Below are positions 3,586-22,553 of a DNA stretch of 64,000 nucleotides, in pieces. The notes beneath the pieces were generated by a model. That model did not search any database. It saw nothing but the letters and a program-made list of their open reading frames with translations, and was not told the DNA's origin. The position numbers and the translations under genes are program-made. The first letter of the stretch is position 1. Each line of letters opens with the position of its first letter. This DNA comes from Pseudomonadota bacterium (lineage in GTDB: Bacteria > Pseudomonadota > Alphaproteobacteria > Sphingomonadales > Sphingomonadaceae): positions 142,244 through 206,243 of the forward strand of contig JAKPHK010000068.1 of NCBI GenBank assembly GCA_029550345.1, given 5' to 3'.

Positions 3586-4080
3586 ATGATGCGCTTGATC
3601 AAAGCCGCTTTTGCCATGCTTGCCGCTTTGGCCGCGCTTCAGGCTCCGCCATCGGCAGCAAAGAACGTCGTCGCCGATGTCGATCAGCTTGCCTCGGTGA
3701 TGAAGGACGCGGGCTACAAGGTCGAGATCAAGGATATGAAAGGCGAACGCTTCATCGCCGTGGAAAGCTCCGGCTACAAGTATGCGATCTTCCCGTTCGG
3801 CTGCGACGATGCCGGGAAGAACTGCAAGTCGGTGCAGTTTTTCGTGGCCTTCGATCCCAAGTCTAGCCCGACGCTGGAGCAGATGAACGGCTATGCCCGC
3901 GAATACCGCTGGGGCCGTGTCTATCTCGACAAGGATGGCGATCCGGCGGTGGAATTCGATCTCGATCTCGAAAAAGGCGGTATGTCGGCCGAGCTTTTCC
4001 TCGATAACGTCGAATATTGGGAGGCGATCATGGTCGCCTATGCCGATTGGGTTTTCGGGGGCAAGGACGAAAAGAAGTAG
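3586..4080 (+). CDS. YbjN-domain secreted protein
   Basis: A 164-residue protein with an N-terminal signal peptide (LIKAAFAMLAALAALQAPPSAA) followed by a YbjN-like domain (pattern ALxxxGYKVEIKD, FIAVESSGYKYAIFPFGC, then VQFFVAF and the C-terminal AELFLDNVEYWEAIM). The family resembles type III chaperone folds but has no settled biochemical role; exported versions are common in sphingomonads. The start is ATG 3586 or the next codon, with GGGAG eight bases upstream. It stands alone between the aldehyde dehydrogenase and thiolase genes. Confidence 0.8.
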   Translation: MMRLIKAAFAMLAALAALQAPPSAAKNVVADVDQLASVMKDAGYKVEIKDMKGERFIAVESSGYKYAIFPFGCDDAGKNCKSVQFFVAFDPKSSPTLEQMNGYAREYRWGRVYLDKDGDPAVEFDLDLEKGGMSAELFLDNVEYWEAIMVAYADWVFGGKDEKK

Positions 4081-4174
4081 GACCACCCCCTACTTTCCGA
4101 CGATTGCCTTTGCTGCGCCGCAGCACTAGAGCGGTGCGGAATCGTTCCCAAAGAAGCTGAGAGGTTGCCCAGCC

Positions 4175-5371
4175 ATGGCCCAGATTTCCGCCAACGATCC
4201 GATCGTCGTCCTTTCCTTCGCGCGTACCCCGATGGGTGCGATGCAGGGCGCGCTTGCCGATGTCAGCGCCACCGATCTGGGCGCCACCGCCATCAAGAGC
4301 GCGGTCGAACGCGCCGGGATCGCCGGTGAGGATGTTGAGCGTGTCTATATGGGCTGCGTGCTTCCGGCTGGCCTGGGCCAGGCCCCTGCCCGTCAGGCAA
4401 CGATCAAGGCCGGCCTGCCCAAATCGGTTCAGGCGACGACCGTCAACAAGGTCTGCGGCTCAGGGATGCAGACCGTTATCATGGGCGCAGAAGCGCTGGC
4501 GGCAGGGACGATCGACATGGTCGTATCCGGCGGCATGGAATCGATGACCAACGCCCCCTATTTGCTCAAGAAGCATCGCTCGGGCGCGCGCATCGGTCAT
4601 GACACCGCTTATGACCATATGTTCCTCGATGGGCTGGAAGATGCCTATGAGCCGGGCCGGGCCATGGGCACTTTTGCGCAGGACACCGCCAACGCCTATC
4701 AGCTGACCCGCGAGAACCAGGACGATTACGCGATCGAATCGCTGCGCCGGGCCAATGCGGCGATCGCCGATGGCGCCTTTACTGCCGAGATTGCGCCGGT
4801 CACCGTGGTAAGCCGTGCTGGCGAAACCGTCGTCGATACCGATGAAGGCCCCGGCAAGGGCCGCCCCGACAAGATCCCCGGCCTGCGCCCGGCCTTTGCC
4901 AAGGACGGCACGATCACCGCGGCAACCTCCAGCTCGATCTCTGACGGCGCCGCCGCGCTGGTGCTGACCCGGGCCAGCGTTGCAGCGGACAAAGGCTTGT
5001 CGCCGGTTGCAACCGTGGTTGCAGTAGCCGCGCACGCGCAGGAACCCAAGGATTTCACCACAGCTCCGGTTGGCGCGATCAACAAGGTTCTGGCCAAGGC
5101 TGGCTGGTCGATGGCCGACGTAGATCTGTTCGAAGTCAACGAGGCTTTCGCCTGTGTGGCGATGTTCGCGATGCATGATCTGGGCATCCCGCACGAAAAG
5201 GTGAACGTTCACGGCGGAGCGACCGCGCTGGGCCACCCGATCGGCGCTTCCGGTGCGCGCATCGTGACCACGCTGATCGCCGCCTTGCAGCGCCACGGTA
5301 AGACCAAGGGCGTGGCCAGCCTGTGCATTGGCGGCGGCGAAGCGACTGCGGTGGCGATCGAACTGGTCTGA
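4175..5371 (+). CDS. Acetyl-CoA C-acetyltransferase (thiolase II)
   Basis: Condenses two acetyl-CoA to acetoacetyl-CoA or runs in reverse; cytoplasmic. The 398-residue protein has the full thiolase signature set: acyl-accepting cysteine in [14 protein letters not shown], the histidine in [16 protein letters not shown] and the second cysteine in SLCIGGGEA. The family includes PhaA, AtoB and related biosynthetic enzymes. With no phaB, phaC or CoA-transferase gene nearby, the pathway (PHB, ketone or amino-acid metabolism) is undecided. The ATG follows GAGAGG at a good distance. Confidence 0.93.
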
Positions 5372-20853: not shown

Positions 20854-20914
20854 CGACGCCGATTTTCACGCTGGCCACCGAACCTATTTGATACCAGCAG
20901 TGTGACGGGATAGG

Positions 20915-21472
20915 ATGGTACAGACCATGCCGGACATTCTCAAGCAAACCGCACTTCTGGATGCCCTGACCGAGAAGCAGCGTCAGGTGCTTGCACTCGT
21001 CTCAGAGGGCATGACAAGCAAAGAAATCGCAAGGAAAATAGGGATTTCCGAAAGTGCCGTTAACCAACGCATCGAGGTTATCCGGCAACGCCTGGGCGGC
21101 TTGTCACGAGCCCAGATCGCCCGTCTCTACCGACAGACAAGCACGCTGGTAATCACGATTCCGACCAGTAATTCGCTTACAGGTAAGCCAATCCAGCTTC
21201 AAGGCAATGAGGGTAGCGCGCACCAATCGTTGCCGGAGGGTGTTGATGGTTTTTCGGCAGTGGCCGACGAAGCCTTCGACGTGTTGCAGCCCTCCACCCT
21301 TTCCCCGATAACGGTCCTCCCATCGGCCCTGCATGGCCGCTGCGGAACGGCGCTGCGTCTGGCGCTGATCGTTTTGATCGCATTCGGGCTGCTGGCCTGT
21401 TCGGTCCTGGTCCTGACTGTCGCACACAGCCTCGATCAATTGGGGTGGCTGGGTTCACACCCCGCACCATGA
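20915..21472 (+). CDS. LuxR-type HTH protein with C-terminal membrane anchor (first of pair)
   Basis: A 185-residue protein. Residues about 15-75 form a GerE/LuxR helix-turn-helix (LTEKQRQVLALVSEGMTSKE, then ESAVNQRIEVIRQRLGG). A polar linker of about 60 residues follows, then one hydrophobic helix (LRLALIVLIAFGLLACSVLV) near the C terminus. The predicted topology puts the DNA-binding domain in the cytoplasm, tethered to the inner membrane. There is no receiver or autoinducer domain. The stop overlaps the next start by ATGA. Base composition is less GC-biased than in neighbouring genes, hinting at transfer. It is a paralogue of the gene at 21921. Confidence 0.85.
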   Translation: MVQTMPDILKQTALLDALTEKQRQVLALVSEGMTSKEIARKIGISESAVNQRIEVIRQRLGGLSRAQIARLYRQTSTLVITIPTSNSLTGKPIQLQGNEGSAHQSLPEGVDGFSAVADEAFDVLQPSTLSPITVLPSALHGRCGTALRLALIVLIAFGLLACSVLVLTVAHSLDQLGWLGSHPAP

Positions 21473-21924
21473 TCACTTCTTCCCTGGTTCTTGGACTCTT
21501 GACCTTGCTCGCCGTGGCGGCGACTGGTTGGCCGGTCCTCAGGCACGAGAGAAATCAGGCCATCGCTTCGGCAGCCATGCTTGTCGGCAAGTGGCCGTTG
21601 CTCTTTTCCGATCTGAGCGGGTCAGCCATTGACGAAGCGCTTGTTCTTGCCGCCTTTGCGGACGGCTTTGGCCTGATCTGGCTGGCCCGAATCGCAGTTC
21701 GACGCGACCGTTGGCATCCGCTGGTCATGGCAGCAACGGCCTTGATTGCCACATTGTGCGACGCGCTGTTTCTTGGCCACCTGTTCACAAGTCTCACCGC
21801 ACTTGTCGCGATGCTTGAAATTTCATGCTATATTCTCGTCATTACGCTCTGGATCGGCCTTTCCGCCACTATCTGGCGGTCGCGTCGCGGACCGGTCCTC
21901 AGCGAAGACGAGGCAAAGGAATGA
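21469..21924 (+). CDS. Small polytopic membrane protein between paired HTH genes
   Basis: A 151-residue hydrophobic protein with about four membrane helices (starting MITSSLVLGLLTLLAVAATG; later LVLAAFADGFGLIWLARIAV; ending with TALVAMLEISCYILVITLW and a basic tail WRSRRGP). I recognise no family and see no catalytic motif. It overlaps both flanking HTH-membrane genes by ATGA, so all three are likely made in fixed proportion. It could be a sensor or partner that controls the tethered regulators; that is inference from arrangement. Confidence 0.8.
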   Translation: MITSSLVLGLLTLLAVAATGWPVLRHERNQAIASAAMLVGKWPLLFSDLSGSAIDEALVLAAFADGFGLIWLARIAVRRDRWHPLVMAATALIATLCDALFLGHLFTSLTALVAMLEISCYILVITLWIGLSATIWRSRRGPVLSEDEAKE

Positions 21925-22454
21925 CCGGCAAGGCAACGGCCGCACAGTCGCTTCCGAACCTGACGCGCAAACAGCGCGATGTCCTTGCGTTGGTGGCGGA
22001 TAACCGCACCAGCAAGGAAATCGCCGCTCGGCTCGGCATTTCGGAAAGCGCGGTCAACCAGCGGATCGAGATGGTCCGGTCGCGGCTGGGCGGTTTGCCT
22101 CGCGGAGAGCTAGCCCGGCTCTATCGCCAGGAATTTCAGCCTCAGGATGCTGATTTATCGGCAAATAATGAAACATGGCAGAAAATTCACCTTCCCGAGG
22201 ACGCCCCTCCCGGCAAAGGCGGCGACGCGGAGAGTATCTCTGTGTTGCAAGCCGATGGGGTTCCTCCGGGCAGCCTGCAATCGGTAGATGGGTCGCAACT
22301 TTCCGCCTTTTTCTTTGAAGAAGATCGCAGCTGGCTGGGCCGGGATGACCGGCCCACCGCGATCGCGCGCCACGCCGTCATCGTCCTGATCGTGGCGATC
22401 AGCCTGGCTTTCGCGGTGGGCGTAACCTGGCTTCTGGGTCCGGTTGGCAGTTGA
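21921..22454 (+). CDS. LuxR-type HTH protein with C-terminal membrane anchor (second of pair)
   Basis: A 177-residue paralogue of the gene at 20915. The HTH region LTRKQRDVLALVADNRTSKE...ESAVNQRIEMVRSRLGGLPR aligns almost residue for residue with the first copy, including the LARLYRQ end. The linker differs (Asp/Ser-rich). A single C-terminal helix (AVIVLIVAISLAFAVGVTWL) anchors it. Such single-pass, N-terminal-HTH proteins recall ToxR/CadC topology but with a GerE domain. Last gene of the three; sdhB begins 99 bases downstream. Confidence 0.85.
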   Translation: MTGKATAAQSLPNLTRKQRDVLALVADNRTSKEIAARLGISESAVNQRIEMVRSRLGGLPRGELARLYRQEFQPQDADLSANNETWQKIHLPEDAPPGKGGDAESISVLQADGVPPGSLQSVDGSQLSAFFFEEDRSWLGRDDRPTAIARHAVIVLIVAISLAFAVGVTWLLGPVGS

Positions 22455-22553
22455 TCGCGCTTTTTTTGGCCAATGCCCGCTTGCCCCGACGCTCCGAATC
22501 GCTAGAGAAGCGCGAAGACGGCGGTATCGGCCGCGCAGCTAACAGGGATCGAA

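What the first reader, a model, noticed from the sequence alone, without database searches (positions are those of the whole stretch)
20915..22454. Three-gene cassette of paired membrane-tethered LuxR-type regulators
Two paralogous proteins, each with an N-terminal GerE/LuxR HTH and a C-terminal single membrane helix, flank an unrecognised protein of about four helices. All genes overlap by ATGA. No phosphoreceiver or autoinducer domain is present. The arrangement suggests a one-component membrane signalling system in which the polytopic protein controls a heterodimer of tethered regulators. Composition differs from neighbouring genes, hinting at transfer. I do not know a described system of this form.
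Basis: partly seen in the sequence, partly recalled or inferred. Interest (0 to 1): 0.75.

Follow-up and report, generated by a model that had tools for sequence, protein, structure and literature searches.

The report
Tail-anchored LuxR regulators with membrane partner
In what is likely a Novosphingobium genome, two similar LuxR-type DNA-binding proteins, each predicted to be moored in the membrane by its tail, flank a membrane protein predicted to have five helices; in the related loci examined the membrane protein always comes with the first regulator and often without the second, so the first two likely form a kinase-free signalling switch that would control its own promoter.

Summary
The three genes are real and overlap as described. 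Genes 1 and 3 encode LuxR/GerE helix-turn-helix proteins ending in one predicted membrane helix; gene 2 a predicted five-helix membrane protein. The triad is not one indivisible machine. At the slot before sdhB in 31 opened loci of the genus, 8 hold the triad, 7 gene 1 + gene 2 (one with a broken remnant of gene 3), 3 gene 1 alone, 13 gene 3 alone: the membrane gene is with gene 1 in 15 of 15. By sequence search gene 2 looked orphan; profiles place it in a family found in 112 of 246 genomes sampled from the order. In the 20 best of those loci it follows a LuxR-type gene with a membrane helix, in 19 also a ~110-residue helical protein. I found no Pfam or NCBIfam model for the membrane or helical family. 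Gene 1 carries a promoter element (ATTTGNTACCAG, 12 of 17 relatives) over its -35 that is otherwise at background. Most likely mechanism (inferred): gene 2's product senses and restrains regulator 1, which controls its own operon; regulator 3 is a separable paralogue. Low GC3 is shared by relatives, so recent transfer is not supported.

The parts
20886..20897 (+). ATTTGATACCAG: conserved element over the -35 of gene 1 (predicted operator)
   Evidence: Strict ATTTGNTACCAG 45-47 bp before the ATG in 12 of 17 gene-1 upstream regions, relaxed form in 14 of 17; none in 1000 shuffled sets; in 13 gene-1 genomes scanned whole, 12 of 15 strict matches are this site
20888..20916 (+). Predicted sigma-70 promoter, TTGATA-17-TAGGAT
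   Evidence: Consensus scan; similar layout in relatives by eye
20927..21472 (+). Gene 1: LuxR/GerE HTH, linker, C-terminal membrane helix (ORF opens at 20915; proposed start 20927)
21469..21924 (+). Gene 2: membrane protein, five helices and N-out/C-in predicted
   Evidence: family
21921..22454 (+). Gene 3: paralogous LuxR/GerE HTH with C-terminal membrane helix
22480..22508 (+). Promoter-like element before sdhB (CTTGCCCC...AATCGCTAGAGA); sdhB likely has its own promoter
   Evidence: 31 sdhB upstream regions compared by eye; ATCGCTAGA exact in 23 of 31

Best explanation
Genes 1 and 2 likely form a kinase-free signalling pair in which a membrane protein, predicted to have five helices, would sense a cue and restrain a LuxR-type regulator that is predicted to be anchored in the membrane by its tail and to act on its own promoter, while gene 3 encodes a similar regulator that occurs next to the pair in some species and alone in others. 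Shown by sequence: domain make-up, overlapping genes, linkage of gene 2 to gene 1, homology of gene 2 to a sphingomonad membrane family encoded behind LuxR-type genes with a membrane helix, the conserved element over the gene 1 promoter, dN/dS well below 1. Inferred: topology, contact between proteins 1 and 2, that protein 1 binds the element, the sign (restraint rather than activation), the signal. Proposed working: protein 1 is held at the membrane by its C-terminal helix; the predicted cytosolic loops of protein 2, which carry the family's conserved motifs (ERxxA, ANRxxPL, basic C-tail), hold its DNA-binding head; a cue releases it and it binds ATTTGNTACCAG at its own operon. In the window gene 3 lacks the upstream pattern that it has in 18 other loci and is coupled by ATGA, so here it would be made together with the pair.
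For: Of 31 opened sdhB-slot loci, 15 have the membrane gene and all 15 have gene 1; of 13 loci with gene 3 alone none has it by my test (BLAST to protein 2, or a same-strand ORF of 100-260 residues with 3 or more hydrophobic segments within 1.5 kb). A canonical membrane profile built without the window's protein finds it in the own genome at E = 2.6e-9; profile-profile comparison gives 99.6% probability, controls at most 1.5%. Reverse test: the 20 best membrane-family loci all have a LuxR-HTH protein with one membrane helix upstream (C-terminal by my rule in 19), 19 also the helical protein (some genomes overlap the first set). Helical next to membrane gene in 50 of 53 hits; the other 3 have no neighbour in the list, which was cut. 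Promoter element. dN/dS 0.17 and 0.20 (gene 1), 0.26 and 0.40 (gene 2), 0.28 (gene 3), against 0.04 and 0.08 for sdhB; two species pairs, ORFs as called. Positive charge is concentrated in loops 1-2, 3-4 and the C-tail, where the conserved motifs lie.
Against: No expression, binding or interaction data. Gene 1 stands without gene 2 in 3 of 18 loci. The element is missing at gene 1 in 3 of 17, one of which keeps the membrane gene (G345). It lies over the -35, which fits repression as well as activation. It is mostly not a clean palindrome (CAAAT-2-ATTTG exact in 4 of 18) and is absent from 51 upstream regions of LuxR-type genes elsewhere (two of these are ORFs without a membrane segment, one region is truncated). 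The gene 1 sequences group with weak support (0.50) and canonical regulators fall between the gene 1 and gene 3 groups, so a duplication in place is not shown. Protein 2 has 12-30% identity to its relatives, so equal function across the family is an inference.
Confidence: 0.55

Rival explanations
1. One reading: the membrane protein controls an obligate heterodimer of the two tethered regulators; the triad is the working unit.
For: Triad in 8 of 31 loci, at three places in a tree with some weak nodes; one pair locus, G336, keeps a remnant of the linker and tail of gene 3 without its HTH and in broken frame (tblastn E down to 3e-12), so the triad is likely old; the stretch SESAVNQRIE of the recognition helix is identical.
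Against: Membrane gene without intact gene 3 in 7 of 15 loci; gene 3 without membrane gene in 13 of 21; in the other 9 loci that have gene 1 but no gene 3, no match better than E = 0.03 lies between gene 1 or 2 and sdhB.
Confidence: 0.15
2. The membrane protein is not a partner of the regulator but its target: a small membrane or transport protein whose amount is set by the linked regulator.
For: The gene follows the regulator directly, like a target gene; fold comparison gives only helical bundles without a telling relative.
Against: The most conserved motifs lie in predicted cytosolic loops; linkage across the family is to regulators with a membrane helix.
Confidence: 0.2
3. The cassette regulates the neighbouring sdhB (succinate dehydrogenase), and the linkage to sdhB is functional.
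For: All 31 opened loci of this subfamily lie directly before sdhB.
Against: The element before sdhB looks alike whichever cassette form is present (by eye); the gene 1 element does not occur before sdhB (0 of 31).
Confidence: 0.1

Closest known systems
LytTR Regulatory Systems (HdrRM/BrsRM; PMC6193735: abstract and passages read)
   Same: Regulator gene followed by a membrane protein gene, no kinase; promoter element near the -35 and autoregulation (here only inferred)
   Different: Soluble LytTR regulator and direct repeats just upstream of the -35 there; GerE-type HTH with its own membrane helix and one element over the -35 here
Co-component systems VtrA/VtrC, ToxR/ToxS, TcpP/TcpH (PMC9214523: abstract and passages read)
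   Same: Membrane-tethered HTH regulator plus a fast-evolving partner, often encoded by an overlapping gene
   Different: Their regulator has a periplasmic domain and the partner a periplasmic lipocalin-like domain; here the regulator ends a few residues after its membrane helix and the partner is polytopic
10-12-TM LuxR regulators of Eggerthella lenta, DadR/CadR/HcdR (PMC9734109: passages read)
   Same: LuxR-type HTH coupled to a polytopic membrane part
   Different: One fused protein with 10-12 N-terminal helices there; a separate five-helix protein and an N-terminal HTH here
Canonical sphingomonad cassette found here: LuxR-type regulator with membrane tail / ~110-aa helical protein / five-helix protein
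   Same: Homologous regulator and homologous membrane protein, same order
   Different: The sdhB-slot version lacks the helical protein and, in 8 of 31 loci, has a second regulator after the membrane protein

Membership tests
LuxR/GerE-type HTH regulators | GerE HTH (PF00196) | tested here: met
   45.1 and 33.6 bits, cut-off 23.5
Quorum-sensing LuxR or NarL-type response regulator | Autoinducer-binding or receiver domain | tested here: not met
   None among the Pfam rows shown (25 of 40 families shown for protein 1, all 25 for protein 3)
LytTR Regulatory System | LytTR DNA-binding domain | tested here: not met
   GerE-type HTH; no LytTR among the Pfam rows shown
LytTR Regulatory System | Membrane protein inhibits the regulator | not testable with these tools
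   Needs a deletion and a reporter
Co-component system (VtrA/VtrC, ToxR/ToxS) | Periplasmic domain on the regulator after its membrane helix | tested here: not met
   In the model of protein 1 the last helix runs 144-179 of 185 residues
Co-component system (VtrA/VtrC, ToxR/ToxS) | Adjacent, often overlapping partner gene | tested here: met
   4-nt overlap of genes 1 and 2 in 8 of 15 loci with both (window, others)
Sphingomonad regulator / helical / five-helix cassette | Regulator with N-terminal GerE HTH and C-terminal membrane helix | tested here: met
Sphingomonad regulator / helical / five-helix cassette | Five-helix membrane protein of the same family downstream | tested here: met
Sphingomonad regulator / helical / five-helix cassette | ~110-aa helical protein between them | tested here: not met
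   The helical profile's one match in the own genome at E <= 1e-5 is at C119, not in the window

The most novel reading that the evidence does not exclude
Sphingomonads carry an undescribed, kinase-free transmembrane signalling module: a five-helix membrane sensor, a small helical adaptor and a LuxR-type regulator moored in the membrane by its tail. The window holds a rewired form in which the adaptor is gone and a second moored regulator has joined, so that two regulators of one DNA-binding specificity share one sensor and one self-controlled promoter.
Probability: 0.3. Interest if true: 0.78.

Novelty: new variant of a known kind. Interest (0 to 1): 0.55.

Why it matters
If true, a family of environmentally important bacteria (degraders of aromatic compounds among them, recalled) uses a membrane signalling module whose parts have no model of their own in the libraries searched. 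The triad, pair and single forms at one chromosomal slot are a natural experiment on how such a module gains and loses parts, and the nearly unique 12-bp promoter element offers a reporter for finding the signal.

Full report
OBSERVATION. Proteins 1 and 3 match GerE and have one hydrophobic C-terminal segment; they are 59% identical over the head domain. Protein 2 matches no Pfam model above cut-off and no NCBIfam model. AlphaFold with 34 aligned sequences gives protein 2 five helices at mean pLDDT 89.6. Mean K+R per region (loop 1-2: 2.3, loop 3-4: 1.8, C-tail: 5.7; N-terminus 0.1, loop 2-3: 0.6, loop 4-5: 1.0) predicts N-out, C-in. Protein 1 is modelled as a head (5-81), a low-confidence linker and a long helix 144-179 (mean pLDDT 77.2).

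WHERE IT IS. The genus has 195 held genomes. The cassette lies between a methyltransferase/rne side and sdhB-PaaI-zapE. In the 195 genomes, 44 had a match to protein 1 or 3 at E <= 1e-20 (union). I opened a matching region in 39 of these: 31 hold the genes directly before sdhB; one (G360) holds a related regulator with a membrane gene and no sdhB beside it; in 7 the opened match is the canonical cassette elsewhere, and their sdhB slot was not opened. Five (G296, G302, G304, G343, G353) were not opened.

THE SLOT BEFORE sdhB. Of the 31 loci: triad in 8 (G000, G252, G344 with gene 1 cut by the contig end, G328, G379, G350, G346, G340); gene 1 + membrane gene in 7 (G286, G221, G338, G367, G345, G354, G336); gene 1 alone in 3; gene 3 alone in 13. 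The membrane gene is thus with gene 1 in 15 of 15 and in none of the 13 gene-3-only loci. G336 keeps a remnant of gene 3 (linker and tail, no HTH, broken frame) between gene 2 and sdhB; the other 9 loci with gene 1 but no gene 3 show no match better than E = 0.03 there. In the locus tree all 13 gene-3-only genomes form one clade (0.94) and triads stand at three places among the pairs, with several weak nodes; in the regulator tree gene 3 sequences form one clade (0.99), gene 1 sequences group weakly (0.50), and canonical regulators fall between the two. The simplest reading is an old triad with later losses; this is inference. dN/dS: gene 1 0.20 and 0.17, gene 2 0.26 and 0.40, gene 3 0.28, sdhB 0.08 and 0.04 (two species pairs, one for gene 3). 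GC3 of genes 1 and 3 is below that of sdhB in 30 of 31 loci, so low GC3 is a property of the genes.

THE WIDER FAMILY. The 60 loci comprise 11 of the sdhB slot (12 regulator entries) and 49 elsewhere: of these 49, 40 have regulator + ~110-aa helical protein + membrane protein, 7 regulator + membrane protein, 1 regulator + helical protein, 1 regulator alone. They were picked as best matches to the regulators, so the reverse test matters: the 20 best membrane-family loci all have a regulator with one membrane helix upstream, and 19 the helical protein (some genomes overlap). Helical and membrane genes found by separate profiles lie within 209 bp in 50 of 53 cases. The membrane family is in 112 of 246 genomes sampled from the order, all labelled as of the window's genus or family, and in 6 of 289 from the class: 4 of the window's family and 2 of one other family. 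In one of those two (G831) helical and membrane genes each stand twice in tandem (by eye). The own genome has a canonical cassette at C119. Two helical and two membrane members (one a fragment) match no Pfam model above cut-off; 26 membrane members match no NCBIfam model at E <= 0.01, and of 20 helical members two have one stray weak match each.

HOMOLOGY OF PROTEIN 2. Profile-profile comparison of 32 canonical and 15 gene-1-linked membrane proteins: 99.6% probability, E = 1.3e-24; controls: reversed alignments 0.2 and 1.5%, 20 column shuffles at most 0.5%, 28 rotations at most 1.2%. A first comparison with four gene-1-linked proteins gave 97.8%, and the window's protein alone 91.8%. A profile without the window's protein finds it at E = 2.6e-9.

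PROMOTERS. Upstream of gene 1, ATTTGNTACCAG starts 45-47 bp before the ATG in 12 of 17 available regions, a relaxed form in 14 of 17 (G344 has no upstream sequence). It covers the predicted -35 and runs into the spacer. In 13 of the 18 gene-1 genomes scanned whole there are 15 strict matches, 12 of them this site; the backward control pattern has 5. In 10 gene-3-only genomes there are 3 matches, none before gene 3, control 2. Five of the six other matches lie in the promoter of a dehydrogenase gene in which the sequence is not generally kept. With this spacing the -10 ends about 10 bp before the ATG, so the transcript would be nearly leaderless (inferred). Gene 3 has an ATTG-type pattern in 18 of 19 regions scored; the window is the exception, and there gene 3 overlaps gene 2 by ATGA, so here it would depend on the gene 1 promoter (inferred). 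sdhB has its own conserved element.

MECHANISM. I commit to: protein 2 senses and restrains protein 1; protein 1 controls its own operon through the 12-bp element; protein 3 is a paralogue with the same core of the recognition helix (SESAVNQRIE in both) that may compete or cooperate at the same sites. Linkage, homology and element are shown; contact, sign and signal are not.

COMPARISON WITH THE KNOWN. It works like LytTR Regulatory Systems (PMC6193735) and co-component systems (PMC9214523) but fails a defining feature of each (LytTR domain; periplasmic domain on the regulator). It is not a fused multi-helix LuxR of the DadR type (PMC9734109). My searches found no paper on this module; the library holds only open-licence papers, so this is weak evidence of absence.

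VERDICT. Real, conserved and without a model in the libraries searched; the conserved pair is gene 1 + gene 2 rather than the triad; new variant of a known kind.

Noticed in passing
L137 (own genome C119:20000-28000), 3773-5140: Canonical cassette in the same genome: LuxR-type regulator with membrane tail, helical protein, five-helix protein of the same family as the window's gene 2.
   Followed up: yes
L187 (genome G336), between about 2990 and 3240: Broken remnant of gene 3 (linker and tail without the HTH, frame broken) between the membrane gene and sdhB.
   Followed up: partly
L273 (genome G831 of another alphaproteobacterial family), 126-1905: Two helical-protein genes followed by two five-helix genes in tandem; by eye no LuxR-type regulator in the fetched stretch, which begins just before them.
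   Followed up: partly
L004 (own genome C26), 1411-2247: 278-residue protein with a LuxR-type HTH, a membrane segment and then a longer C-terminal part: a different membrane-tethered LuxR architecture in the same genome.
   Followed up: no
Genome G353, C26:66743-67261: Gene 1 relative with an internal stop; the locus was not opened.
   Followed up: no
window 22480-22508 and the same place in the 31 loci: Conserved promoter-like element of sdhB (CTTGCCCC ... AATCGCTAGAGA), alike whichever regulator form precedes it.
   Followed up: partly
L281, L285, L290, L291, L295 (dehydrogenase promoter); L296: Six further strict matches, all reading ATTTGCTACCAG; five sit at the -10/start region of one dehydrogenase gene, exact in 5 of 17 aligned upstream regions, so probably chance; the sixth is unresolved.
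   Followed up: partly
Linkers of proteins 1 and 3 (alignments A1, A5): The predicted disordered linkers carry conserved short motifs (TIPTSNSLTGKPIQLQ-like in protein 1, TWQKIHLP and GSQLSA in protein 3), more than a plain tether would need.
   Followed up: no
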